Below are positions 6,816 through 25,255 of a stretch of DNA of 55,376 nucleotides, in pieces. The DNA is taken from contig LCDG01000006.1 of NCBI GenBank assembly GCA_000998425.1, positions 1 through 55,376 of the forward strand, in the 5' to 3' direction. The notes under the pieces were generated by a model. The model had not been told where the DNA came from and searched no databases. It was given only the letters and a program-made list of their open reading frames with translations. The DNA is from Candidatus Nomurabacteria bacterium GW2011_GWC2_42_20 (GTDB lineage: Bacteria > Patescibacteriota > Minisyncoccia > Phycocordibacterales > UBA1550). How positions within the stretch are numbered: the first letter of the stretch is position 1; each line of letters opens with the position of its first letter. The translations under genes and the position numbers were made by a program.

Positions 6816-7196
6816 ATGCGTATCCTAGGAGTTACAATACCAGATGAAAAAAGATTGGAGATAAGCCTTACCGCAGTGTACGGCATTGGTCGCCCGCGCG
6901 CAAAAAAGCTTCTTGATGAAGTAAACATAGAGCATGGCAAGCTAGCCAAGGACTTAACTCCAGATGATGAGGCAAAGATTCGTAAAATTATTGAGGGTCT
7001 CACACTAGAAGGCGATCTTAAACGTGAAATTTCAACAAACGTGAAGCGTTTGAAGGAAATTAAATCACATAGAGGATCACGTCACGCAAAGAAGCTCCCT
7101 GTACGCGGACAGCGTACAAAAACAAACTCACGCACAGTGCGTGGGAATAAGCGAACGACAATGGGATCAGGACGTCGTAAGGCTGACAAGAAGTAA
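6816..7196 (+). CDS. rpsM: 30S ribosomal protein S13
   Basis: 126 aa. MRILGVTIPDEKRLEISLTA and the helix-two-turn-helix YGIGRPRAKKLL are diagnostic. The basic tail SHRGSRHAKKLPVRGQRTKT contacts the head of the 30S and the P-site tRNA. No Shine-Dalgarno motif precedes it. It is followed by rpsK after 9 bases. Confidence 0.98.
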   Translation: MRILGVTIPDEKRLEISLTAVYGIGRPRAKKLLDEVNIEHGKLAKDLTPDDEAKIRKIIEGLTLEGDLKREISTNVKRLKEIKSHRGSRHAKKLPVRGQRTKTNSRTVRGNKRTTMGSGRRKADKK

Positions 7197-7205
7197 CATA
7201 ATATT

Positions 7206-7640
7206 ATGGGAAAAAAACGAATTATAAAAAAAGAAGGACAGAGCGTTGACCAGGGATTGGTATCTCGAGCTCTTTCGCGCACTGCAAAAAAGAAGCACGT
7301 AGAAGGCACTCTATATGTTCAATCTACATACAACAACACTAAGGTTCTTCTTGCAGACAAAGTCGGAAACGCACTTGTTTGGTCATCGTCTGGCTCACTC
7401 GGTTTCAAGGGCGCAAAAAAGGGTACACCATTTGCTGCAGCAAAAGTTGGCGAGCTTGTTGGAGAAAAAGCAGCAATGATCGGTATGAAGTCTGTCGATG
7501 TTGTAGTGAAGGGCGTTGGTGCTGGTCGCGAGAGTTCGATTCGTGCAGTGAATTCAAAGGGTATCGACATTTCATCGATTCGCGACGTAACACCTGTTCC
7601 ACACAATGGACCAAAGCCAAAGAAGCCACGTAGAATTTAA
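7206..7640 (+). CDS. rpsK: 30S ribosomal protein S11
   Basis: 144 aa. The core GTLYVQSTYNNTKVLLADKV through VKGVGAGRESSIRAVNSKGI and the C-terminal DVTPVPHNGPKPKKPRRI are typical of S11, which lines the mRNA exit region of the platform. A lysine-rich N-terminal extension of about 25 residues precedes the core, common in bacterial S11. It sits between rpsM and rpsD as in most bacteria. Confidence 0.98.
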   Translation: MGKKRIIKKEGQSVDQGLVSRALSRTAKKKHVEGTLYVQSTYNNTKVLLADKVGNALVWSSSGSLGFKGAKKGTPFAAAKVGELVGEKAAMIGMKSVDVVVKGVGAGRESSIRAVNSKGIDISSIRDVTPVPHNGPKPKKPRRI

Positions 7641-7664
7641 ACCTAGAATACAATAATCACAATT

Positions 7665-8276
7665 ATGAGCAGAGTTACATGTAAAATTTGTCGTCGTCTC
7701 GGAGAGACCATTTGCGGACGTGAAAAGTGCGCGTTTAAGAAGCGCCCGTATCCACCAGGTAAGTTGATTTCTGAAAAGAAACACCGCTCAACTCAGACTG
7801 ATTACGGTCGCCAGCTTCGTGAGAAGCAAAAGGTTCGCCATACATATGGCGTGAGTGAAACGCAGTTTTCGAATTATGTAAAGGAAGCTTCAGGTAAGCA
7901 AGGAGTCAATCCAGCAGAGTATCTTTTTGAGGCTCTTGAGTCACGTTTAGATAACACAGTATTTCGTGCAGGGTTTGTGTCGTCACGAGCACTTTCTCGC
8001 CAGATTGTGTCTCATGGGCACGTTATGGTCAATGGTCGCCGAAGTAACATTGCATCACGCAGAATGAAAGTTGGAGACGTTATAACAATCCGTCCAGGGA
8101 GTATGAGTACAAAACTTTTTGACGGATTAGTAGAACGTTTAAAGGCTGCTACAGTGCCAACTTGGTTTAAAATTGATGGAGATAAGCTTACTGCAACACT
8201 ACAGGGTAAGCCAAAGCCTGGACAAGCAGAGATGTCATTTAATCTCACTTCAGTTATTGAATTTTACAGTCGTTAG
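7665..8276 (+). CDS. rpsD: 30S ribosomal protein S4
   Basis: 203 aa primary 16S rRNA-binding protein that nucleates 30S assembly. It keeps the four-cysteine zinc motif at the N-terminus (CKIC at residues 6-9, then Cys 17 and Cys 22), so it is the zinc-containing form. The S4 RNA-binding domain follows (RLDNTVFRAGFVSSRALSRQ, HGHVMVNGRRSNI). The C-terminus TSVIEFYSR matches the family. Confidence 0.98.
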   Translation: MSRVTCKICRRLGETICGREKCAFKKRPYPPGKLISEKKHRSTQTDYGRQLREKQKVRHTYGVSETQFSNYVKEASGKQGVNPAEYLFEALESRLDNTVFRAGFVSSRALSRQIVSHGHVMVNGRRSNIASRRMKVGDVITIRPGSMSTKLFDGLVERLKAATVPTWFKIDGDKLTATLQGKPKPGQAEMSFNLTSVIEFYSR

Positions 8277-8307
8277 TAGTATCAGTGCCTGCGCCCAAGT
8301 ATCCAGT

Positions 8308-8336
8308 TTGCATTTATCAATGATTTAAGGTATAGT
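8308..8336 (+). promoter_or_regulatory. Internal promoter in front of rpoA
   Basis: TTGCAT at 8308-8313, 17-base spacer, TATAGT at 8331-8336, in the 90-base gap after rpsD. It would give rpoA a leader of about 24 bases and allow expression independent of the upstream ribosomal genes. Confidence 0.6.
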
Positions 8337-8366
8337 TTCATCGTCTAATTTACACCACACACCAAA

Positions 8367-9335
8367 ATGCTCGACTACAACATTACATTGCCATCGAAGC
8401 CAAAAGTTCTCTCTGAGGACGGTTTTAAGGGGAGTTACGAGATTGAAAGTCTTTATCCTGGATACGGTCACACTCTAGGTAACTCACTTCGTCGCATTAT
8501 TCTTTCATCACTTTTGGGTGCAGCAATCACCACAGTAAAGATTGATGGTGTTTCGCATGAATTTTCTACACTAAACGGTGTAAAGGAGGATGTTATTACA
8601 ATCCTTCTAAATCTAAAGAAAGTCCGCTTCAAGCTTTCTACAATGGATCCACAGACAATAACCCTTTCGGTTAAGGGTGCAAAAGATGTTACTGCAGGTG
8701 ATATTAAGGTTTCTGGCCAGGTGGAAGTTTTGAACGGAGATCAACATATTGCAACACTAACAGACAAGAACGCGTCACTCGATATTGAAATCGTTGTGGC
8801 AAAGGGCTTTGGGTACGTGTCAAAGGAGGTTCACCAGAAGGAAAAAGTCGATATTGGCACCATTGCTGTGGATGCGATTTTTACGCCAATTCGTCGTGTG
8901 AACTACGAAGTGGACAATATGCGTGTTGGCGACCGTACAGATTTTAATCGTTTGCGTATCACAGTAGAAACAGACGGCACAATCACTCCTCGTCGCGCAC
9001 TAGAGGCATCTATTGAAATTATGGTAAACCAACTCAAATCAGTTATTGGCTTCGTTGAGAAAGCAGAAGTAGAGGCAGAGGATACCTCAGATAAAAATGA
9101 GGAGAAACCTGCAAAAAGGGACACAGCTGACAATGATTTCCTAAAGACTCGTGTTGAGAACCTTGATTTGTCCACTCGCACAAACAATGCGCTTTCTAAC
9201 GCAAATATTCGCACAATAGGCGGTCTTGCGCGCAAAACAGAAGAAGACCTTCTTGAAATTGACGGTCTAGGGGACAAGGGTATTCAAGAGATCAAGCGCG
9301 CGCTTTCTGCTCACGACATAACTCTTAGGGCGTAA
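8367..9335 (+). CDS. rpoA: DNA-directed RNA polymerase subunit alpha
   Basis: 322 aa. The N-terminal dimerisation domain includes the YPGYGHTLGNSLRRIILSSL signature (about residues 30-49). A charged linker (residues 230-255) leads to the C-terminal DNA- and regulator-binding domain with two helix-hairpin-helix motifs (LSNANIRTIGGLARKTEEDL, IDGLGDKGIQEIKRAL). The intact C-terminal domain implies UP-element or activator contacts are possible. Gene order S4-alpha-L17 is the conserved alpha operon. Confidence 0.98.
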   Translation: MLDYNITLPSKPKVLSEDGFKGSYEIESLYPGYGHTLGNSLRRIILSSLLGAAITTVKIDGVSHEFSTLNGVKEDVITILLNLKKVRFKLSTMDPQTITLSVKGAKDVTAGDIKVSGQVEVLNGDQHIATLTDKNASLDIEIVVAKGFGYVSKEVHQKEKVDIGTIAVDAIFTPIRRVNYEVDNMRVGDRTDFNRLRITVETDGTITPRRALEASIEIMVNQLKSVIGFVEKAEVEAEDTSDKNEEKPAKRDTADNDFLKTRVENLDLSTRTNNALSNANIRTIGGLARKTEEDLLEIDGLGDKGIQEIKRALSAHDITLRA

Positions 9336-16456: not shown

Positions 16457-17350
16457 TCAATAGTTTATTCCTTGTTCGTAATGTTTTAATATCGCCTTAA
16501 TCCCGGCAAGATTTCTTTCCCACTCGACAGTCTCGTGAGTTTTGAGCTCAACAGTAATCGCTGGGATGTTTATTGAAGCAAGCCATCCTTCTACGTCACC
16601 GGAAACCTCATATGCGTCAAATGTTTTGATAGCCTTGTATCCAGACGCTTGGGAATACACATTCATAATATCGAGTGTTTTTGGAAGAATCCCATCCTCG
16701 CACTCTGATGCGTATACGGCGTTCGCTTTGCTGTGCCAGAAAATAGCGCCAGCGGGAGCGTATGTGGAAACAAAGTCTCGAATGGCCACAGCTTCTGGTT
16801 CCGAAAATGCACTTACCCCTGCGCTCACTACCTTGCTTTTCCAGGTGCTCTCCGGTTTCCATTTGCAGTCAAAATTTCGATTTATGTCCACCTCGTGCGC
16901 ATTGAAGCGCCCTGTTCCGTTTACTTGTTCTAGGGTTGGCACATCGCCGATTGCAAAGCGACCCTCTTTTTTGATTACACGGTATACGCCGTCTGGATTT
17001 GCAGAGGGAATCACGGCAACTGTTATATTTTTAGGAATTACGTCGAGATTTTCCTTTAGATAATCCATGAATTGATACAATAAAACCACGCTGTTCCATT
17101 CGTAACCGCCATGAATTCCCCCGACAAACATAAGGTGAGTTGGTCCCGCTCCGTACATGTATGCATCAATGTTTCTTCCTTCTACGGATTTGCCGATTAC
17201 CTTATGGACTGGGTAGGAAACAGCTGGTTCTCTCTGCGGTTCTGGTGTGATCTTTTCGCTTTGACTCGTTAGGATGAGTATGCCAATCGCGACGAGCACC
17301 ATAATAACACCAAGGATTGCAACGGTATTTTTTACACGGCGGTTCTTCAT
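16457..17350 (-). CDS. Membrane-anchored M14-family zinc carboxypeptidase (second of a tandem pair)
   Basis: 297 aa. An N-terminal transmembrane anchor (residues 8-28) places the enzyme outside the membrane. The M14 zinc-site motif HxxE is present as HGGYEW, followed by IPSANPDGV, the substrate-binding motif INRNF, and WHS for the third zinc ligand. The probable catalytic Glu is in VELKTHE. These peptidases trim peptides or peptidoglycan stems (MpaA-like), but the substrate is not shown by sequence. Its ATG shares one base with the stop of the upstream paralogue (TAATG), so translation is coupled. Confidence 0.8.
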   Translation of the reverse strand: MKNRRVKNTVAILGVIMVLVAIGILILTSQSEKITPEPQREPAVSYPVHKVIGKSVEGRNIDAYMYGAGPTHLMFVGGIHGGYEWNSVVLLYQFMDYLKENLDVIPKNITVAVIPSANPDGVYRVIKKEGRFAIGDVPTLEQVNGTGRFNAHEVDINRNFDCKWKPESTWKSKVVSAGVSAFSEPEAVAIRDFVSTYAPAGAIFWHSKANAVYASECEDGILPKTLDIMNVYSQASGYKAIKTFDAYEVSGDVEGWLASINIPAITVELKTHETVEWERNLAGIKAILKHYEQGINY

Positions 17351-18267
17351 TACTTAGCGTAGTGCTTCAGAAGTGCTTCAATACCTGCGAGGTTTTTTGT
17401 CCATTCAGTGTCTTGATGTGTGGTTAGGAGCACACTGATTGCAGGGATATTTTTCTTTGCTAGCCAGTTTACCATGTCACCTGTCAGTTTGTAGAAGTCG
17501 TAACTTTCATAGGCTGGGTATCCTGAAGCTGTAGCGTATGTAGTAGTAAGGGTCATCGTTTCAGGGAGAATTCCATTGTGGCAGCTTGAGGAAAACACTC
17601 CGCCTGCCGAGCTATACCAAACGACAACGCCCGACGGGTTATGCGCCTCGACATAGTTTTTGAATGCAATGCTTTCTGTCTCAGAAAATGCCTTGCTTCC
17701 ACCGCTCACTGGCGTGGTCATCCAAACACCTTTTGTTTGCCAATCACAATCAAAGTTACGGCTGAGGTCAACATTGTTCGCGTTGAAGCGACCGGATATT
17801 ACTATTTCGTCTGAAGTTGATACATCCTCCCTTGTGAAGCGACCTTCCTTGCCAACAACTTTTATAAGACCATCTGGATTAAGAACAGGAATGACGGTAA
17901 CCTTTACACCTTCAGGAACAACGGCAGGATTTGCCGTTAGATGATCCATCAGCTGGTAGGCAAGGAGGACTGTGTTCCATTCGTAACCACCGTGAGTGCC
18001 CCCAACAAACAACAATTCTTTTGCGCCGGTGCCGAAGTGGTATGCGGGGATAGGTCGATTTTCAACAGAAATACCAATAACAGTTTTTGTGGTGTCCACA
18101 GTTTTGGTAGTGTCGACAGGTTTTGTCGGTTCTGCTTCTGCGGTGGTCGGGGTAGTAACAGGTGCGTCTACCGCAGGAACTGGAGCTACACCTCTATTTT
18201 GGATAAAAAAGTACACACCTACCCCAATAAGTACAATGACCACTAATGCAATAATTGTTTTTTTCAT
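17350..18267 (-). CDS. Membrane-anchored M14-family zinc carboxypeptidase (first of a tandem pair)
   Basis: 305 aa, similar along its whole length to the following gene: HGGYEWNTVLLAYQLMDHL, VIPVLNPDGL, VDLSRNFDCDW and AISVLLTTHQ. The N-terminal anchor (residues 3-22) is followed by a Pro/Thr-rich spacer of about 45 residues that the other copy lacks. Differences near the active site are notable: the third-ligand region is WYSS instead of WHS, and the catalytic Glu position reads VLLTTHQ where the paralogue has VELKTHE. This copy may therefore be inactive. The ATG at 18267 was chosen because the longer frame adds a poor N-terminus. Confidence 0.75.
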   Translation of the reverse strand: MKKTIIALVVIVLIGVGVYFFIQNRGVAPVPAVDAPVTTPTTAEAEPTKPVDTTKTVDTTKTVIGISVENRPIPAYHFGTGAKELLFVGGTHGGYEWNTVLLAYQLMDHLTANPAVVPEGVKVTVIPVLNPDGLIKVVGKEGRFTREDVSTSDEIVISGRFNANNVDLSRNFDCDWQTKGVWMTTPVSGGSKAFSETESIAFKNYVEAHNPSGVVVWYSSAGGVFSSSCHNGILPETMTLTTTYATASGYPAYESYDFYKLTGDMVNWLAKKNIPAISVLLTTHQDTEWTKNLAGIEALLKHYAK

Positions 18268-18308
18268 AACATCTATTTTACCATAGATAAAGAAATGCAA
18301 GTAGTTCG

Positions 18309-18434: not shown

Positions 18435-18449
18435 TGCTCCGCGGGTAGG
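18435..18449. repeat. Putative left attachment site (attL)
   Basis: TGCTCCGCGGGTAGG, identical to 25182-25196. It lies at the boundary between the peptidase region and the accessory genes. Confidence 0.6.
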
Positions 18450-18482
18450 CCCAAGGCATGAACTTGCTAGTTTAGGATCGCC
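18436..18482. repeat. 47-bp direct repeat, copy B, overlapping the putative left attachment site
   Basis: Second copy of the repeat at 18309. Its first bases coincide with the 15-bp sequence shared with the 3' end of tRNA-Asn. Further downstream (18512-18560) an inverted repeat AGAAACAAAA/TTTTGTTTCT encloses a small GC hairpin, a possible terminator. I see no convincing gene in 18268-18668. Confidence 0.65.
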
Positions 18483-18668
18483 CCTTCGGGTCGACACTAT
18501 CTTAGACTCAAAGAAACAAAAAAGCCCCAACGCATTAGCGTCAGGGACTATTTTGTTTCTGGCTCACTTTAGTCGACGACTTTAGAACTGTTAATTGGTT
18601 GGAAGAGTATCCGTTCCCAGAAACAGATTTAAGGGAATTAAAAGAATTACTAATAGCCTAACGTATTT

Positions 18669-19256
18669 TTATGCTTTTACTCCAGCTCGTGCGGGGAACT
18701 CATATATAAATTTCAAAAGCATTTCTAGGAAGGTCATTATCTCCTCTGCATCTTCTTTTTTCTTAATGACTATTTCATGATTTGCTTCGTTTCCGTGAGA
18801 ACGAATTTTATCAACCCATTCTTTGCTGTTAGGCGGAGCATAGTGGTTGTCTACAAGATAATTAACATACTCAAGGAACGACAACCCTTCCTTTGCGCCC
18901 TGAGCAACACCAATGTGCATCAAAAGTTTTCTTCCGGTTAACACAGCAGAGGAGTATGCTCCATGACTTGTCGATTCTCTAATTTCTGACCAAATAGTCT
19001 CTATTTCAGTTGGCAAGTTTTTCACAACGTTTCCCAATGAGACTCCTGGAACTTGAGTACCAGTTTCGAGATCAAAAAAAGTCGGACGTTTACAAAATGG
19101 GCATATTTGAATAAGGCCATCGATAGCCCCATTGTCATTTCTTTGATGAAACCAGCCTTTTTCCGAACCGATATCTTTCCCGCAAGCCGAATAACCACAT
19201 GTGTAGTTTTTTGCTGTCATTTCTACTACGTTCTGCCAATTTTTTTGTGCCTGCAT
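18669..19256 (-). CDS. DUF4145-domain protein with N-terminal zinc-finger-like cysteines
   Basis: 195 aa. Four cysteines in CGYSACGK and ICPFCKRP (about residues 20-25 and 52-55) suggest a zinc ribbon. The rest, from LPTEIETIWSEIRESTSHGA through SAVLTGRKLLMHIG to a helical C-terminus with HGNEANHE, fits DUF4145, a domain often found beside or fused to restriction and other defence enzymes. No nuclease domain is attached. It is the leftmost gene of the putative element, on the opposite strand from the recombinase. The biochemical role is unknown. Confidence 0.7.
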   Translation of the reverse strand: MQAQKNWQNVVEMTAKNYTCGYSACGKDIGSEKGWFHQRNDNGAIDGLIQICPFCKRPTFFDLETGTQVPGVSLGNVVKNLPTEIETIWSEIRESTSHGAYSSAVLTGRKLLMHIGVAQGAKEGLSFLEYVNYLVDNHYAPPNSKEWVDKIRSHGNEANHEIVIKKKEDAEEIMTFLEMLLKFIYEFPARAGVKA

Positions 19257-19319
19257 TTCTTACTTATACCACAGAATATAGTGTTTTGGAATTAAGGGGT
19301 TTAGGTGTAGTGTGAAAAT

Positions 19320-19742
19320 ATGGACCCCCAAAATACACGCCCTTGGTATCAAAAGAAGCGATACCTGATCCCGGTTGGAGTAGTTGTCTTGATGACCTTG
19401 TCAGATGGCAGTAATACACCACAGAATCAGCCTACACAAGGGGTAACTCCTGCGACATACCAAACAGAGGTGCATGCGAATACGACCTCGCAAAGTCCAC
19501 AACCGCCTGCTTCTTCCGAAAGTATTACGCAGAAAAGCGTCGTTCCGTCTACGTATACTAGCCCAGGGTTATCAAATGATAATTACTATACAAACAGCGC
19601 GGGGAACGAAGTACATTCTCCCGCTTATTCAAATACAGTTCCAGATGGAGCTTCTGCTCAGTGTCGTGATGGCACGTACAGTTTTAGTCAGTCACGGCGT
19701 GGCACTTGCTCGCATCATGGTGGTGTCTCTGTGTGGTTATAG
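19320..19742 (+). CDS. DUF3761-domain secreted or anchored protein
   Basis: 140 aa. An N-terminal basic stretch and a short hydrophobic segment (YLIPVGVVVLMTL, residues 15-27) suggest a signal or anchor. A Thr/Pro/Ser/Gln-rich spacer follows, then the C-terminal cysteine motif CRDGTYSFSQSRRGTCSHHG ending GVSVWL, which is the DUF3761 signature. The two Cys could form a disulphide outside the cell. The function of the family is unknown. It converges with the three-gene operon, only 5 bases away. Confidence 0.75.
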   Translation: MDPQNTRPWYQKKRYLIPVGVVVLMTLSDGSNTPQNQPTQGVTPATYQTEVHANTTSQSPQPPASSESITQKSVVPSTYTSPGLSNDNYYTNSAGNEVHSPAYSNTVPDGASAQCRDGTYSFSQSRRGTCSHHGGVSVWL

Positions 19743-19747
19743 TTAAA

Positions 19748-20368
19748 CTATTCTTTCTGGTCATCTGGTAATCCTATTCGAGAAAGATAATTTGAAAATC
19801 TTTGAGATAGGCGCTCCCTATATAATTCACGTAAAGACCCAAGATAGGACTTGTGATAGTTCATCACAAGTGCCTCTAGTGGAATGGTATGAAAACGTTT
19901 AAAATCGATGATCATTTCGGGGAAAATTCGAGACGCATCATCTCCAAAGGCACTGAGATAGTGATATCTATGGTATCTTTCATTTAGAATTAGATGTTTA
20001 AGGGCGCTGGCTTGTCCCTTTTTCCCGTCAAAGTCGTTCATTTTTCTTTCCTCAATATGTTGACCCTCTAAAAACTTTTCATGAGGATATGCTGGGCAGA
20101 CAAGAATTGTATCTAATATCTTATCATCACTTTTTTTAGACAGAGCTTCATCTGTCCCTATTGCATCCAGCTGCAAGTTCTTCTTTAGTTGGTTATAGTG
20201 TTGAGAAAGATCACATGCCTGTGTTAAAACAACTGCGTATGGGAATGGGAACTGAATGAGAAGATCGCCATCATCTGAAGGTATCTTATACGAAAAAGAG
20301 AGGTCTCGAAAAATGTCACCTTGGCTAATCTCTGTATTTTTTGACTGAATGTAATGTTGAGATTCCAT
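19748..20368 (-). CDS. Conserved hypothetical protein of the TIGR04255 operon (third gene)
   Basis: 206 aa from the ATG at 20368 (a TTG at 20395 would add 9 residues). It is not assigned to a named family. Notable blocks: EISQGDIFRDLSF, PYAVVLTQACDLSQHYNQ, DTILVCPAYPHEKF and LNERYHRYHYLSAF. The phrase VVLTQACDLSQ resembles a motif I recall from hypothetical proteins of mobile regions, without a known activity. It overlaps the preceding small gene by 44 bases in another frame, indicating tight coupling in one operon. Confidence 0.65.
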   Translation of the reverse strand: MESQHYIQSKNTEISQGDIFRDLSFSYKIPSDDGDLLIQFPFPYAVVLTQACDLSQHYNQLKKNLQLDAIGTDEALSKKSDDKILDTILVCPAYPHEKFLEGQHIEERKMNDFDGKKGQASALKHLILNERYHRYHYLSAFGDDASRIFPEMIIDFKRFHTIPLEALVMNYHKSYLGSLRELYRERLSQRFSNYLSRIGLPDDQKE

Positions 20369-20531
20369 TTGTGGATCTAATAACCGTTCTAACAATTTTT
20401 GATGATGGATACTGAATAGAATCTACCACAAATACCTCGTTTTTGGATACAGCTTCCTCTTTATAGGAACCAGTATTGATTATAAAGCTGTCATTTTCGT
20501 AGGATACTGTATTGTTAGTTTTTTTGTTCAT
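20325..20531 (-). CDS. Small hypothetical protein, middle gene of the TIGR04255 operon
   Basis: 68 aa, MNKKTNNTVSYENDSFIINT at the start; not recognised. It begins one base after the stop of the TIGR04255 gene and its 3' end overlaps the next gene by 44 bases. The spacing supports translation, but the protein has no diagnostic motif. It is polar, without a membrane segment, and could be an adaptor or an antitoxin-like partner; that is inference only. Confidence 0.55.
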   Translation of the reverse strand: MNKKTNNTVSYENDSFIINTGSYKEEAVSKNEVFVVDSIQYPSSKIVRTVIRSTNGISTLHSVKKYRD

Positions 20532-20532
20532 T

Positions 20533-21303
20533 TTATTTTTTCGACATTAGCTTTCTTAGCTCTGGCTTAATACTCATTTCAAATAGGTCCTGAATGAACA
20601 CATTGTAATTTCTCACTGTTTCAGCAATAACGTCTTCAGATGACAATGGGAATCTCGAGAAGCAATCATAGTCGAGAATAAACTCCTTCCTAGTGTTTTC
20701 GTTTGGGTGGTCTTGGTTCCATATACCATATCTGAACCTTAGGTCAGCTTCGTCGTATTTAAGATCAAGTTGAGTCATTGCTCGCGAAATCATCTTCTTA
20801 GTTTTTCCTCCAAATTTTACGGCACCGAGTAGGTTCTCTGCGATATAGTCAGACCAATTAAAGTTAGTCTTTATGAAATTTAAATCAACTCGATTGATGT
20901 AGCGCAAGCCCAATCTGTTGATTGTTGTAATATCAAATGTGCCTACAAAATCACGAATAACAGTATCGCAATCTTTCATCAATTCATTTTTGTCCTTGTA
21001 ACTTCTGTCTCCATACTCGATGATTATGAAATCACCCGAAATTGTCAATTTCTTTTTTCTTGTGGCGCTGAGGAATTCCCACACTTTAACGCTACTTGTA
21101 TCATTTTGAACAGAGTTCTTTTTAAGATCAAATTCCAATTTCCCCTTGATTGCATCTTTTTGTTCTTGAAAAGGGAAATCGCCTTTTATTTTTGTTGAAA
21201 ATGAAGATAAGTTTTTCAGCTCTATTTGCTCAAAGTCGAGCCTCAAAACAACCTTATCAAGAAAATTTTGTTTATAACTTGCCTTGTTTTTCTTCGTGTT
21301 CAT
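20533..21303 (-). CDS. TIGR04255-family protein
   Basis: 256 aa, matching the sporadically distributed TIGR04255 family: an N-terminal FLDKVVLRLDFEQ strand, a central beta-rich region with VWEFLSA and ISGDFIIIEYGDRSYKDKN, then TTINRLGLRYINRVDL (about residues 125-140), the family's most recognisable block. The C-terminus is helical (YNVFIQDLFEMSIKPELR). The biochemical function of the family is unknown and its patchy distribution suggests horizontal transfer. It is the first gene of a three-gene operon. The 160 bases upstream (21304-21464) hold its promoter region and no other gene. Confidence 0.75.
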   Translation of the reverse strand: MNTKKNKASYKQNFLDKVVLRLDFEQIELKNLSSFSTKIKGDFPFQEQKDAIKGKLEFDLKKNSVQNDTSSVKVWEFLSATRKKKLTISGDFIIIEYGDRSYKDKNELMKDCDTVIRDFVGTFDITTINRLGLRYINRVDLNFIKTNFNWSDYIAENLLGAVKFGGKTKKMISRAMTQLDLKYDEADLRFRYGIWNQDHPNENTRKEFILDYDCFSRFPLSSEDVIAETVRNYNVFIQDLFEMSIKPELRKLMSKK

Positions 21304-21464
21304 ATCGTTGTGACCAGTATAACAGATTTATTATATAGTAGGCATCATTCCGTTGCTGTTTGCTTGTTACTATTGCATAAAATGGTGTAAAAATCTAGGT
21401 ATAACAAAAGTTATCCTTCCTACTTACAAGGCCATGTTGCAGCGATGTCTATCGTAGAAAGTTA

Positions 21465-21752
21465 CTATAAGCTGTCGTTTTTTAGTGAATGTTCTTCCTC
21501 AAGGGCTGTGATTGCCAATTTTTGGATTTTATTTTTTTCGTTCGTAATGTGTTTAATGTGTGCCTTTTCCTTAAAATGTTGTACAGCTACAGAAAGAAAG
21601 GATACCCCAAGAATTATACCGGTCAATAAGTAAAGTACATTTTGAACATTCAAAAAAAGATTGCCAGCATAATTCCACAGAAGAAGTGAGCCACCAAAAA
21701 GGATAACTAAAACAAATACACCCTCGAAGTCTTTATTGCTGTTTTTATTCAT
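21465..21752 (-). CDS. Small two-helix membrane protein of the element
   Basis: 95 aa from the ATG at 21752. Two transmembrane helices, about residues 12-32 (VFVLVILFGGSLLLWNYAG) and 37-57 (VLYLLTGIILGVSFLSVA), then a charged coiled-coil-like tail (KEKAHIKHITNEKNKIQKLA). It is not recognised. Small two-helix proteins with a cytoplasmic tail occur as immunity, holin-like or effector proteins; nothing here decides between them. The longer frame upstream overlaps an inverted repeat and is less likely. Confidence 0.55.
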   Translation of the reverse strand: MNKNSNKDFEGVFVLVILFGGSLLLWNYAGNLFLNVQNVLYLLTGIILGVSFLSVAVQHFKEKAHIKHITNEKNKIQKLAITALEEEHSLKNDSL

Positions 21753-21841
21753 AAGTTTTGCGGGATTATATATTTGTGGCAAACAAAAAGCCCACCACAT
21801 GGTCAACGGCCGAAACCGTTCATATCGGTTTCCCGATATGG

Positions 21842-21887
21842 CCCGCAAAGACAACCCCATATGATGGGTTCTTTATGTCTTTGCGGG
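21842..21887. promoter_or_regulatory. Inverted repeat in the divergent control region of the element
   Basis: CCCGCAAAGACA (21842-21853) pairs with TGTCTTTGCGGG (21876-21887) around a 22-base spacer that itself has CCCATATGATGGG. It lies in the 220-base gap between the divergent membrane-protein gene and the 249-residue gene, so it may be an operator or an RNA hairpin. Confidence 0.5.
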
Positions 21888-21972
21888 ACTTCTTTTGCCA
21901 TGCCGCCGATTTCTCGATGGTTTAGGCTACTTCTCTATTCAGTTGTGGTAAAATTGTAGCACAGAGCTGACT

Positions 21973-22722
21973 ATGTTTAAAGGACTTAAAAACGGAAAGA
22001 AGAAGGCATATGAGATTTATGATCGAGCGTGTTGGCGTGAGGGATTCAACGATGACCTCGCTGCTTTTAGGGGGAAATACGAAATTCCGAAACTAGATGA
22101 GGAGAAACAAAATAAAAAGGATATTGAAGATTTGCTTTTGAAGTATTTTGTATCAGCGATGGACAATCTGCACTCAATGCCTGTTGCAGGTGATGCAGAC
22201 AAGGGTCCAGGGCCACAATATCTTAAGGACCGAATCATGTTTCTCAACAAATATGGCTTTCCATCCGTTTCTTTTGGGGATGCAATGGACGCAATTTTAC
22301 TCGAAGAGGTGCCTGCATACCAACCATTCGAAGTGTCTGCTGTTTCGGAAGTTACCTTGTTGGAAAATGCTGGGGCGCAACTTTGTCTACAGGTTGACGC
22401 TCTTGCAAGTAGAGATGAGACTCTCGAATATATAAGAAAAAACTGGGGTGCTATGCAAAAACTTCTTCTCGGGATGGTCCACAAAAGAAAGAGGGTCAAG
22501 ACGAGGGGCAACAGAGATCGAGACAAGCTTATCTATGATTACTATACATACTATAAAAAGCATCCCAAAGAATGGAAAGGTGCACACGCGTACCCTTTGC
22601 AAGCTGTCATTCAAAAACTTCTTGAAGATGGGTACCCTAGATTAAACATAGAAGCAATCAACCAGTCTTATCGAAGGGAAAAGAAACGCAGAGTGAAAGT
22701 CGGGCGTAAACAGACTGGTTAA
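21973..22722 (+). CDS. Hypothetical protein with a basic, possibly DNA-binding C-terminus
   Basis: 249 aa; not recognised. The N-terminal 150 residues are mixed helical. Residues ~165-249 are strongly basic (HKRKRVKTRGNRDRDKLIYD at the start, RREKKRRVKVGRKQ at the end) with a helix-turn-helix-like stretch PLQAVIQKLLEDGYPRLNIE. It would suit a regulator or replication/excision accessory protein. It is the first gene of the rightward block leading to the recombinase. Confidence 0.55.
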   Translation: MFKGLKNGKKKAYEIYDRACWREGFNDDLAAFRGKYEIPKLDEEKQNKKDIEDLLLKYFVSAMDNLHSMPVAGDADKGPGPQYLKDRIMFLNKYGFPSVSFGDAMDAILLEEVPAYQPFEVSAVSEVTLLENAGAQLCLQVDALASRDETLEYIRKNWGAMQKLLLGMVHKRKRVKTRGNRDRDKLIYDYYTYYKKHPKEWKGAHAYPLQAVIQKLLEDGYPRLNIEAINQSYRREKKRRVKVGRKQTG

Positions 22723-22752
22723 GTGTCTCTAATTTCTCGCTTGTTTTTAAAG

Positions 22753-22784
22753 ATACTGTGATCATACCAATCACGGTATTTTTT
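22753..22784 (+). terminator. Terminator or attenuator directly before the 57-residue gene
   Basis: ATACTGTGAT (22753-22762) pairs with ATCACGGTAT (22770-22779, one G-T pair), followed by six T. The T run ends at the base before the ATG at 22785, so the hairpin could end the upstream transcript or attenuate the downstream genes. Confidence 0.65.
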
Positions 22785-22958
22785 ATGTCTGAGCTGGTCA
22801 AAACAAACGAAAACATTTTAGATCGAGATATTGTCTCGTTCTTTGATTTGCTTGCTCGTTTTGATTATGAGGACAAACAAAAAGAAGGGTCGTTGTTCAA
22901 TTCTGGCTCCTCAGTCTCAGCTCCTGAGGGGTCGGAATTGGACAAAGATAATAAATAA
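22785..22958 (+). CDS. Small acidic hypothetical protein
   Basis: 57 aa from the ATG at 22785 (MSELVKTNENILDRDIVSFF), acidic and polar, not recognised. It lies between the terminator-like hairpin and the winged-helix gene, 4 bases before that gene's ATG. The spacing makes it a plausible gene; there is no domain evidence. Confidence 0.45.
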   Translation: MSELVKTNENILDRDIVSFFDLLARFDYEDKQKEGSLFNSGSSVSAPEGSELDKDNK

Positions 22959-22962
22959 AATC

Positions 22963-23469
22963 ATGACAGAGCTGAAAGATGGACACTGGTTCGCAGTTGA
23001 TAATAAATTTATTGATTCTTATGCGTCTCATTTTAGCCCTGCTACAATTGCAGTATATGTTGCTATCTTGAGGTTTAGATTTGGTAGTACAGATAGGGCC
23101 CGCATCTCGCAGGATTCTTTATCTAAAAAACTGGGAATTAGCCGAGAAGCTGTTGGTAGAGTTTTAAAAACTTTAGTTGCTCATTCTCTTTTGCGGGTTG
23201 AGAAAATTAAACGGAATAACGGTACATGGTCTTACAATGAATATCTTGTAATTGATGAGAAGTACTGGCTTCCACCATGTGACCCTATATCACACGGGGT
23301 CGAATTAAGACCATGTGATATTTGTGCAAAAAACCATGAGACCTATCATCACACTAAAAAGACTAAATACAAAAAGACTAATAAATATAGGAATGATTTC
23401 CTTTTGGAAAACAGAAGAGAACTCGCTGCTGGCTTCAAAATGGGCAAAAGGAACACTGGTTATGGATAA
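22963..23469 (+). CDS. Winged-helix DNA-binding protein (replication- or regulator-like)
   Basis: 168 aa from the ATG at 22963. Residues ~15-105 form a winged helix: DSYASHFSPATIAVYVAILR, then the recognition block ISQDSLSKKLGISREAVGRV and a wing VEKIKRNNGTWSYNEYLV. A second part has HxC/CxxC-like residues (PPCDP, RPCDICAKNH), a possible zinc site, and a basic tail. The pattern resembles phage/plasmid replication-initiation or regulator N-domains. The three repeats just downstream could be its binding sites. Confidence 0.65.
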   Translation: MTELKDGHWFAVDNKFIDSYASHFSPATIAVYVAILRFRFGSTDRARISQDSLSKKLGISREAVGRVLKTLVAHSLLRVEKIKRNNGTWSYNEYLVIDEKYWLPPCDPISHGVELRPCDICAKNHETYHHTKKTKYKKTNKYRNDFLLENRRELAAGFKMGKRNTGYG

Positions 23470-23476
23470 ACGTAAG

Positions 23477-23592
23477 TGCTGGCAAAGGTTTGCATTTTGT
23501 AACATACCGTGGCATTTATCGGAGGGATGTTGTGTTAGCAAATGTTAGCTTTTCCTAGGGGGGGGTAGTTTGTTGGCAAAGGTTGACATTTT
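23477..23592. repeat. Three iteron-like 22-bp direct repeats upstream of the recombinase
   Basis: Copies at 23477-23498, 23533-23554 and 23571-23592 share TGyTrGCAAAkGTT followed by an AT-rich end; copies 1 and 3 match at 19 of 22 positions. They fill the 175-base gap between the winged-helix gene and the recombinase. They may be operator, replication or recombination sites. Confidence 0.65.
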
Positions 23593-23644
23593 TAATGAGT
23601 GTACCGTTTTTAGAAAAGGTTATTTTAAGTTAAAATATAAACAT

Positions 23645-25195
23645 ATGAAATCTATAATTTATTGCCGTGTCTCATCTCGAGAGCAAGAAGAAACAGGATA
23701 TTCGTTGGAATCTCAGGAGAAGTTTTTGAAAGAATACGCGGATAAGCAAGCTTTTGCTATAGCAAAAGCTTATAAGGTCACCGAGTCAGCAAGTAAATGG
23801 CAAATTCGCACAACCCTAAAGGAGATGCTTGAATATGCGGAGGAAAACAATATCAATGTTATTCTCGTTGAAAAGATTGACCGCTTAACTCGTAGTCTCA
23901 AGGATGCGGCAATTGTTAATGATTGGGTTCACCAAAGAGGTGAACGAGAGGTTCATTTTACTAAAGAGAATTTTGTTCTAAGTAAAAATACCCGGTCTCA
24001 CGAAAACTTGGTTTGGGATATGAAAGTTGCCATCGCTCGTTTCTATACGAACAATCTCTCAGAAGAAGTAAGGAAGGGCCAGAAGGAAAAAATTGCACAA
24101 GGATGGCTTCCAACAAAGCCTCCACTTGGGTACAAGACGGTTGGAGAAAAAGGTCACAAGATTCATGTTGTTGATGAGGATAAAGCGCCCTTTATTAAAA
24201 AAGCATTTGAACTTTATGCAACCGGCAACTTCTCTCTTTTGTCATTGCGCGAAAAACTTTATACCGATGGCTTGCGCACGCGAGTGGGAGCAAAGCTTTC
24301 AAAGAGTCGCCTTGAGGATATTCTGAGGGACCCATTTTACTGCGGTTCTATGCGATGGAATGATGTCGTGTATCAACACGGAAGACATGAGCCCCTTGTC
24401 TCAAAGGATCTCTTTGAGAAGGTTCAGTATTCTCTAACCCGCAAAAGTGCGCCACACTATCGACGACATCTCTTTCAATTCAGCAAGATGATTAACTGTG
24501 GCGAGTGTAATGGTACCGTGAGCGCGGAAATGCAAAAAGGTTATGTGTACTATTCGTGCAAGCATGCCCGAGGATGCAATCAAAAAGGGATGACACGAGA
24601 AGAGAAAATCGAGAATGCCATTATCGGGGTATTCAAGATTTTTGAGAGCATGACGGAGGAAGAGGCTCAGGAAATTTACCGTAGAATTAGAGAGGACCAC
24701 AAAGCAGAGGCTGACTACAAGGAAAGCGCCATTAAGACCCTTAACGACCGTTACAGCTCACTACAGAGGCGTTTAGATATACTTTACGATGATCGTTTGG
24801 CAGAGAAAATAAGCCAGGAGCGCTGGCAAGGTAAACAGGATGAGATGGTACGTGAACAAACCGAGATACAGGCTCAAATCGCTAAAATTAAGCGCGAGGA
24901 GACGAAGTATTTTGAAGTGTATATAAACATTCTTGACCTAGCGCGTCGTGCTCGAGAAATTTATGAAAAGCGAACACCGGAAGAGAAACGACTTTTAATT
25001 TCGCATCTTTTTTCGAACCTCGTCTTAAAAGACAAAGAAGCTAGTTATTTATTGAAGAAACCAGTCGAGCTGTTCGCAAAAAGAGTCCAAGAGAAGATTG
25101 ACTCTCAAAAGAAGTTCGAACTCGAGAAAAGCGTTGGTAATAAAAGAAAAAACAGGGCTTTTGACCCTGCTTCTTCACCTTTGCTCCGCGGGTAG
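23645..25195 (+). CDS. Large serine recombinase (site-specific integrase)
   Basis: 516 aa. The N-terminal resolvase domain starts IIYCRVSSREQEETGYSLES, where the Ser in RVSS is the expected nucleophile, with LVEKIDRLTRSLKD further on. The recombinase domain (GWLPTKPPLGYKT, GLRTRVGAKLSKSRLEDILR) and the zinc ribbon (CGECNGTVSAEM, YYSCKHARGC, about residues 285-320) follow, then a long coiled coil. All are diagnostic. It likely integrates and excises the element. Its last codons overlap the 3' end of tRNA-Asn, so excision would change the C-terminus of the recombinase or the tRNA end. The ATG at 23645 gives the family N-terminus. Confidence 0.95.
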   Translation: MKSIIYCRVSSREQEETGYSLESQEKFLKEYADKQAFAIAKAYKVTESASKWQIRTTLKEMLEYAEENNINVILVEKIDRLTRSLKDAAIVNDWVHQRGEREVHFTKENFVLSKNTRSHENLVWDMKVAIARFYTNNLSEEVRKGQKEKIAQGWLPTKPPLGYKTVGEKGHKIHVVDEDKAPFIKKAFELYATGNFSLLSLREKLYTDGLRTRVGAKLSKSRLEDILRDPFYCGSMRWNDVVYQHGRHEPLVSKDLFEKVQYSLTRKSAPHYRRHLFQFSKMINCGECNGTVSAEMQKGYVYYSCKHARGCNQKGMTREEKIENAIIGVFKIFESMTEEEAQEIYRRIREDHKAEADYKESAIKTLNDRYSSLQRRLDILYDDRLAEKISQERWQGKQDEMVREQTEIQAQIAKIKREETKYFEVYINILDLARRAREIYEKRTPEEKRLLISHLFSNLVLKDKEASYLLKKPVELFAKRVQEKIDSQKKFELEKSVGNKRKNRAFDPASSPLLRG

Positions 25196-25196
25196 G
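25182..25196. repeat. Putative right attachment site (attR) in the tRNA-Asn 3' end
   Basis: TGCTCCGCGGGTAGG, identical to 18435-18449. It covers the acceptor-stem 3' strand and part of the T-stem of tRNA-Asn, and also the last codons of the recombinase. Confidence 0.6.
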
Positions 25197-25255
25197 GATC
25201 GAACCTACGACCAAGCGATTAACAGTCGCTTGCTCTACCACTGAGCTACCGCGGA
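25184..25255 (-). tRNA. tRNA-Asn (anticodon GTT)
   Basis: Read on the minus strand: acceptor TCCGCGG/CCGCGGA, D arm TAGCTCAGTGGTAGAGCA, anticodon stem-loop with CTGTTAA giving anticodon GTT, T arm with GGTTCGATCC. The 3' CCA is not encoded. It overlaps the recombinase stop region by 12 bases on the opposite strand. Confidence 0.95.

What the first reader, a model, noticed from the sequence alone, without database searches (positions are those of the whole stretch)
19748..21303. Three-gene operon (TIGR04255 protein, 68-aa protein, VVLTQACDL protein): candidate undescribed system
The genes are packed with a 1-base gap and a 44-base overlap inside a mobile element, next to DUF4145 and DUF3761 genes. 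TIGR04255 is patchily distributed with no known function, and the third protein is unassigned. Overlapping small gene plus two larger partners is how many defence or toxin-antitoxin modules look. Function is inference; nothing enzymatic is visible.
Basis: partly seen in the sequence, partly recalled or inferred. Interest (0 to 1): 0.7.

Follow-up and report, generated by a model that had tools for sequence, protein, structure and literature searches.

The report
Three-gene toxin-type module with swappable toxin
This is a widespread but apparently unstudied three-gene cassette, carried by mobile DNA in bacteria and archaea, that looks like a toxin held in check by two partner proteins; relatives keep the same controlling protein while changing the toxin, which makes a phage-defence or self-protection role likely and testable.

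Summary
The three genes are real, at the stated coordinates, on the minus strand. They are cargo of a 6.7-kb integrative element (18435-25196) in a Patescibacterium: serine recombinase, 15-bp att repeats at the tRNA-Asn 3' end, and an empty site in two congeners. The trio TIGR04255 - small protein - 'TQxCD' protein recurs in the same order in nearly every bacterial and archaeal relative found, including prophages and a plasmid. The third protein is in no family library used; its confident AlphaFold model has the MazF/CcdB toxin fold, but the MazF catalytic Arg and Thr are not conserved and an invariant Q-x-C-D is. Censuses anchored on TIGR04255 show the same layout with other third genes: true PemK/MazF, HEPN, Septu PtuB-like HNH. 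In three archaea with 73-79% identical TIGR04255, the third gene is TQxCD in two and PemK-like in one. The middle gene is either disordered or an HTH protein. Best reading: a tripartite toxin-antitoxin-like module, with TIGR04255 as constant controller or sensor, the middle protein as antitoxin or adaptor and the third as exchangeable toxin, probably anti-phage. Toxicity, neutralisation and the trigger are untested. No paper in the searched library names TIGR04255.

The parts
20533..21303 (-). TIGR04255 family protein (256 aa), first gene; proposed constant controlling/sensing component
   Evidence: NCBIfam TIGR04255 E 6.2e-29; AlphaFold2 pLDDT 93.0, pTM 0.88; weak structural likeness to guanido-kinase, AdoMetDC and TBP folds; invariant Y102, R130, G132, R134, G193, D211, D213, F241 in 29 homologues
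20325..20531 (-). small 68-aa protein, middle gene; proposed antitoxin/adaptor, mostly low-complexity with a basic C-terminal motif (SSKIVRTVIRS)
   Evidence: Syntenic ~57-87 aa ORFs in relatives; 62% P/S/T/N/Q/D/E/K/G over 25 homologues, shared C-terminal motif Y-G-x-x-K-x-x-R-x-x-I; tail absent in the middle protein that goes with a PemK-like third protein
19748..20368 (-). third gene (206 aa, ATG start; ORF open to TTG 20395), MazF/CcdB-fold 'TQxCD' protein; proposed toxin
   Evidence: AlphaFold2 pLDDT 90.9, pTM 0.86; first 36 Foldseek PDB rows all MazF; VIA-align Z 9.9 MazF-mt3, 9.3 CcdB; no Pfam, NCBIfam or PADLOC hit
18435..18449 (.). att repeat (left end of the integrative element)
   Evidence: 15-bp direct repeat with 25182-25196; empty site in L059/L060
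25182..25196 (.). att repeat (right end), 3' end of tRNA-Asn
25183..25255 (-). tRNA-Asn, integration target
   Evidence: ARAGORN; conserved in congeners
23570..25195 (+). large serine recombinase/integrase of the element
   Evidence: phrog_95 integrase E 4.2e-78
22831..23469 (+). HTH / replication-initiator-like protein of the element
   Evidence: phrog_270 replication initiation E 7e-9; Pfam HTH_36 E 1.6e-4
18669..19256 (-). DUF4145 protein, co-cargo of the element (not part of the trio)
   Evidence: Pfam DUF4145 34.2 bits; PADLOC PD-T7-4 E 3e-4, weak; phrog_1305 E 5.5e-20
19320..19742 (+). DUF3761 protein, co-cargo of the element (not part of the trio)
   Evidence: Pfam DUF3761 85.8 bits

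Best explanation
The trio is a tripartite toxin-antitoxin-like module carried as cargo by a tRNA-targeting integrative element. The third protein is the toxin/effector: a MazF/CcdB-fold protein with its own invariant Q-x-C-D, not the MazF catalytic pair. The small, probably disordered middle protein is the antitoxin/adaptor: its basic C-terminal strand neutralises the toxin and the rest couples it to TIGR04255. TIGR04255 is the constant controlling part that holds the complex and probably senses infection or another stress; when the complex is disturbed the toxin is freed and stops growth (abortive infection), as CmdC does in CmdTAC. Shown here: conserved three-gene order, predicted toxin fold, exchange of the third gene for known toxin/nuclease families, mobile cargo. 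Inferred: toxicity, neutralisation, complex formation, phage trigger.
For: (1) Conserved synteny over bacteria, archaea, prophages and plasmids. (2) Distances of TIGR04255 and the third protein covary, rho 0.78 over 27 loci, 0 of 5000 permutations as high. (3) Predicted MazF/CcdB fold. (4) Effector exchange: PemK over cut-off in G488 (L105); HEPN (L121, L130, L142, L146, L147, L149, L151, vir080); PtuB-like HNH beside prophage integrase (L089, L091, L092); in archaea with 73-79% identical TIGR04255, TQxCD (L148, L152) versus PemK-like (L150). (5) Middle gene is a HTH protein in several members, and its C-terminal tail follows the toxin type. (6) Mobile cargo.
Against: No toxicity or phage data. 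MazF likeness is by predicted structure only: profile comparison gives probability 0.5% and PemK HMM scores are not significant; catalytic Arg/Thr absent. About ten of the 20 best archaeal TIGR04255 loci show no partner genes and sit among housekeeping-looking genes. PADLOC knows neither protein. The largest class of third protein in Pseudomonadota (13 of 30, grouped by eye) has no recognised fold.
Confidence: 0.68

Rival explanations
1. An addiction (stabilisation) module: same toxin/antitoxin parts, but the role is to keep the integrative element, plasmid or prophage from being lost, with TIGR04255 as an auxiliary antitoxin or regulator and no phage sensing.
For: Repeated location on small integrative elements, a plasmid and prophages; toxin-fold third gene.
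Against: Several copies are on chromosomes with no integrase recognised within about 8 kb; addiction modules usually need only two genes; exchange of effectors under a constant TIGR04255 suits a sensor better. Does not exclude the best explanation: both may hold.
Confidence: 0.2
2. The third protein is not a poison but an enzyme (Cys-Asp centre in a MazF-like barrel) that modifies a substrate presented by TIGR04255, a housekeeping or modification pathway.
For: Invariant C52 and D53 at the start of a helix, with R134, D155, R190 and R197 (27-28 of 28) look like a catalytic set; MazF catalytic residues absent.
Against: Patchy distribution (4 of 287 Patescibacteria, 30 of 398 and 5 of 398 in two other samples, 58 of 393 in the archaeal sample), mobile cargo, and replacement by HEPN, PemK or HNH in the same slot.
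Confidence: 0.1
3. TIGR04255 with the middle protein is the immunity part and the trio protects against a toxin delivered from outside, or regulates element excision or replication rather than defence.
For: HTH middle proteins in part of the family; the element has its own replication-initiator-like gene.
Against: Third-gene families PtuB-like HNH, PemK and HEPN are effectors, not regulators; the module also occurs away from replication genes.
Confidence: 0.07

Closest known systems
MazF/PemK mRNA interferases and CcdB (type II toxins)
   Same: Predicted fold of the third protein (VIA-align Z 9.9 / 9.3, all top Foldseek rows MazF); small partner gene just upstream and overlapping; a true PemK sits in the same slot in L105.
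   Different: No sequence-profile relation, MazF catalytic Arg and Thr not conserved, about 200 aa rather than 110, invariant Q-x-C-D, third partner TIGR04255.
Toxin-antitoxin-chaperone (TAC) and CmdTAC systems
   Same: Three genes; a toxin, an antitoxin and a third partner; in CmdTAC the third partner senses a phage capsid protein and releases the toxin (PMC11618068, abstract read).
   Different: Third partner there is a SecB-like chaperone; TIGR04255 is another family with another best structural likeness (guanido-kinase/AdoMetDC/TBP-like, weak). Toxins differ.
Septu (PtuAB)
   Same: PtuB-type HNH nuclease is the third gene in three prophage relatives (PADLOC PtuB E 1e-21).
   Different: No PtuA ATPase; TIGR04255 and a middle protein instead. 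The window's own third protein is not HNH.
Combinatorial type II toxin-antitoxin network (NetFlax; PMC10440598)
   Same: One controlling protein paired with many toxins; MazF/PemK among the commonest folds.
   Different: That survey handles only two-gene systems by its own statement, so a three-gene family such as this would be outside it.
NCBIfam TIGR04255 (sporadically distributed family, function unknown)
   Same: The first protein is a member above the curated cut-off.
   Different: The family model says nothing on partners or function; none of the papers searched mentions it.

Membership tests
TIGR04255 family | match to the NCBIfam model above the curated score | tested here: met
   101.5 bits vs 30, residues 10-253 of 256
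MazF/PemK mRNA interferase | PemK-like SH3-barrel fold | tested here: met
   predicted model only: pLDDT 90.9; top 36 Foldseek rows MazF, prob up to 1.00, TM by target mostly 0.53-0.68; VIA Z 9.9, 110 residues, rmsd 3.5
MazF/PemK mRNA interferase | sequence-profile match to PF02452 | tested here: not met
   no Pfam hit; hhalign probability 0.5%; PemK HMM E 0.72
MazF/PemK mRNA interferase | conserved catalytic Arg (before Pro of strand 2) and Thr (after strand 3) | tested here: not met
   corresponding columns (by motif register) hold L/H/F and A/Y, no conserved R or T/S in 28 homologues
Type II toxin-antitoxin system | toxic protein neutralised by a small protein encoded next to it | not testable with these tools
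   arrangement fits; toxicity and neutralisation need experiments
Type II toxin-antitoxin system | two-gene organisation | tested here: not met
   third partner gene conserved
TAC/CmdTAC | SecB-like chaperone as third partner | tested here: inconclusive
   TIGR04255 model gives other folds at middling Z; absence from the list excludes nothing
Septu | PtuA ATPase with PtuB HNH nuclease | tested here: not met
   no PADLOC hit for any of the window's three proteins
Known anti-phage systems in PADLOC-DB 2.0.0 | match to a PADLOC model | tested here: not met
   none for TIGR04255 or TQxCD proteins apart from one weak E 3e-3 match; only the PtuB-like third proteins match

The most novel reading that the evidence does not exclude
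TIGR04255 is the sensor/controller of a large, so far unnamed class of three-gene immune modules across bacteria, archaea and their viruses, in which a toxin slot is filled by at least four effector types: a new MazF/CcdB-fold family with a Q-x-C-D centre, PemK/MazF, HEPN and PtuB-like HNH, plus an unrecognised family. The toxin-specific tail of the middle protein adapts each effector to the same controller. The Q-x-C-D family would be a new toxin chemistry on an old toxin fold.
Probability: 0.45. Interest if true: 0.85.

Novelty: new variant of a known kind. Interest (0 to 1): 0.75.

Why it matters
TIGR04255 is a curated family without function, found here in about 1-15% of genomes of four sampled phyla. 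Tying it to a constant three-gene layout with interchangeable toxins gives it a testable role, adds an unnamed toxin-fold family to the MazF/CcdB superfamily, and points to a class of modules that two-gene toxin-antitoxin surveys would miss. Its presence in Patescibacteria, with genomes near or under 1 Mb, shows that even minimal genomes carry it as mobile cargo.

Tried and rejected
Pfam, NCBIfam, PADLOC and PHROGs for the third and small proteins: nothing useful. PDB sequence search with both profiles: none significant. Sequence-level link of the third protein to MazF by hhalign or HMM: not significant; the link rests on predicted structure. Weak TIGR04255 match in L010: that frame is a type I restriction R-like protein, set aside as spurious. 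HicA-like third protein in L095: not supported by PF07927 or PDB. HEPN in vir080 alone: not found by Pfam or PDB, but found once aligned with two others. Cholera-toxin B rows are chance matches (E 0.65 or worse). Viral scan with window TIGR04255 alone: none. Promoter-like sites not above shuffles. Defence-island enrichment: not shown; integrases and resolvases were the commonest neighbours (11 of 143 ORFs), type I restriction R twice; no matched control was run. TIGR04255 fold: guanido kinase (Z 8.2), AdoMetDC and TBP are middling matches, so no activity is inferred.

Full report
OBSERVATION. The window lies in a 679-kb assembly of a Patescibacterium (relatives found are Patescibacteria). On the minus strand three ORFs follow one another: TIGR04255 (21303..20533), a 68-aa protein (20531..20325) and a third protein (ATG 20368..19748), with a 1-base gap and a 44-base overlap. 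The first matches NCBIfam TIGR04255 at 101.5 bits (cut-off 30); the other two match no family in Pfam, NCBIfam or PADLOC (PHROGs gives only an E 0.0095 match to a family of unknown function).

THE ELEMENT. A 15-bp direct repeat (18435-18449 and 25182-25196) contains the 3' end of tRNA-Asn. Between the repeats lie a serine integrase, a replication-initiator-like HTH protein, DUF4145, DUF3761 and the trio. In two genomes of the same genus the sequence left of 18449 continues directly into tRNA-Asn, which is the empty site (L059, L060). So the trio is cargo of a ~6.7-kb integrative element. In L012, L013 and L029 a recombinase gene likewise runs into the 3' end of a tRNA gene (Lys, Met, Glu), and L021 has a tyrosine integrase beside tRNA-Ser.

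CO-OCCURRENCE. tblastn of the third protein finds a Methylocystis plasmid with the same three genes in the same order. A scan of genome contigs gave 36 relatives of the third protein in Patescibacteria, Pseudomonadota, Clostridia, Endomicrobia, Bacteroidota, Planctomycetota, Omnitrophota, Chloroflexota, Acidobacteriota and archaea. Leaving out contigs cut off upstream (L031, L035, L041), only L045 lacks a TIGR04255 gene directly upstream; in L015 it is fragmentary. The gap between the two holds a short ORF of 57-87 aa, or about 100-180 aa in a more distant clade. Distances of the two large proteins covary (Spearman rho 0.78, 27 loci, no permutation of 5000 as high; 0.69 within the short-middle clade).

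THE THIRD PROTEIN. AlphaFold2 on 28 homologues gives pLDDT 90.9. The first 36 Foldseek rows against the PDB are all MazF (best E 2.3e-3, probability 1.00); VIA-align gives Z 9.9 for MazF-mt3 and 9.3 for CcdB. There is no sequence-level relation to PemK/MazF, and the columns of the MazF catalytic Arg and Thr, placed by motif register, are not conserved. Instead Q50, C52, D53, D155, F156, R197 and P201 are invariant in all 28, and R134, K157 and R190 in 27. It therefore shares the toxin fold but is not filed as a MazF. Two further sets, with 'SNTCD' and 'TQSCN/SQTCN' cores, are linked to it by profile comparison (probabilities 92% and 86%).

THE MIDDLE PROTEIN. In the window's clade it is about 65 aa, rich in P/S/T/N/Q/D/E/K/G (62% against 49-50% for its partners), with a C-terminal motif like YGsgKpRRiIirG (window: YPSSKIVRTVIRS). 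In other members it is an HTH protein (Chroococcidiopsis plasmid, HTH_3 E 1e-4; by reading also L090, L103, L106, L111, L113, L128), as many antitoxins are.

TIGR04255. The model is confident (pLDDT 93), but its structural matches are middling: arginine kinase catalytic domain Z 8.2, AdoMetDC 7.4, TBP 6.6. Invariant residues include R130, R134, D211 and D213. No activity is claimed.

EFFECTOR EXCHANGE. Searches anchored on TIGR04255 found it in 4 of 287 Patescibacteria above cut-off, 30 of 398 genomes of the phylum of the Duganella locus, 5 of 398 of the phylum of the Clostridia locus and 58 of 393 of the phylum of the archaeal locus L016. In the Pseudomonadota sample, 27 of 30 loci are followed on the same strand by two further genes. 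The third gene is of the TQxC superfamily in 10, PemK/MazF in 1 (L105; PF02452 E 3.9e-18 over cut-off at that place; PDB MazF E 8.5e-6), HEPN in 1, a 'LTCAT' family in 2, another unrecognised group in 13 (grouped by eye, provisional; no PDB relative), and unassigned, absent or cut off in 3. In the archaeal sample five of the 20 best loci carry HEPN, two TQxCD and one a PemK-like protein (HMM E 6.7e-11). Those last three share 73-79% identical TIGR04255 proteins, so the third gene was exchanged under a nearly constant first gene. The middle protein with the PemK-like toxin lacks the basic C-terminal segment found with TQxCD, as expected if that segment is the toxin-binding part. In three prophage contigs (L089, L091, L092) the third gene is a PtuB-like HNH nuclease (PADLOC E 1e-21), two of them beside an integrase.

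PROPHAGE COPIES. The TQxCD trio also sits after phage tail and lysis genes in prophage contigs L076-L078, beside an integrase in L078. In L079-L082 and L004 TIGR04255 is replaced by DUF6941, again near lysis genes in the prophages (the amidase in L081 is confirmed by PDB match; the others by reading). The space after the lysis genes often holds cargo genes useful to the lysogen (general knowledge).

MECHANISM. The best-supported reading is a tripartite toxin-antitoxin-like module: third protein as toxin, middle protein as antitoxin/adaptor, TIGR04255 as constant controller, perhaps sensor. The analogy is CmdTAC, in which a chaperone partner senses phage capsid protein and its loss frees the toxin (PMC11618068). 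Shown: synteny, fold prediction, effector exchange, mobility. Inferred: toxicity, neutralisation, complex formation, trigger. Rival roles are element addiction, an enzymatic pathway, or regulation of the element.

NOVELTY. No paper in the searched library (5.39 million open papers) mentions TIGR04255 or DUF6941; subscription papers and preprints were not searchable. PADLOC does not know the TIGR04255 or TQxCD proteins. The combinatorial toxin-antitoxin survey NetFlax states that it handles only two-gene systems. I call it a new variant of a known kind.

LIMITS. No control for neighbourhood enrichment was run; defence-gene neighbours are few. About ten archaeal genomes carry an apparently solitary TIGR04255 among housekeeping-looking genes. 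The MazF assignment rests on a predicted model.

Noticed in passing
window 18669-19256 (-): DUF4145 gene as further cargo of the same element; DUF4145 is treated in the HEPN superfamily survey (PMC3710099, found); weak match to the anti-phage protein PD-T7-4 and a match to phrog_1305.
   Followed up: partly
window 18435-25196: Complete ~6.7-kb tRNA-Asn integrative element in a Patescibacterium with serine integrase and replication-initiator-like gene; empty site in two congeners.
   Followed up: yes
L079-L082 (about 7000-8600), L004 1447-2875: A second architecture: DUF6941 + ~105-175 aa middle protein + TQxCD protein, in prophages near the lysin gene; function of DUF6941 unknown.
   Followed up: partly
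L100, L109, L110, L112, L114, L117, L118, L122-L127: A provisional, heterogeneous family of ~95-225 aa third proteins (NPAHxxI-like motif in several) after TIGR04255; no PDB relative.
   Followed up: partly
L134, L136-L141, L143-L145: Solitary, well-conserved TIGR04255 genes in related archaea, without a recognisable partner and beside housekeeping-looking genes; perhaps domesticated.
   Followed up: no
L028 7956-8903: TQxCD protein fused to a starch-binding CBM20 domain (Pfam E 9.9e-9).
   Followed up: no
L074 5168-10150: Rhizobium plasmid: TIGR04255 with two unassigned partners directly after a multiubiquitin/ThiF/DUF6527 cluster and near a queC-like gene.
   Followed up: partly
window 16457-18300 (-): Two tandem related genes that look like secreted M14-type carboxypeptidases, just outside the left att site (by reading).
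   Followed up: no
L095 753-1480 (-): TIGR04255 followed by a 142-aa and a 100-aa protein that look HicB/HicA-like by eye, but PF07927 and PDB searches did not confirm it.
   Followed up: partly
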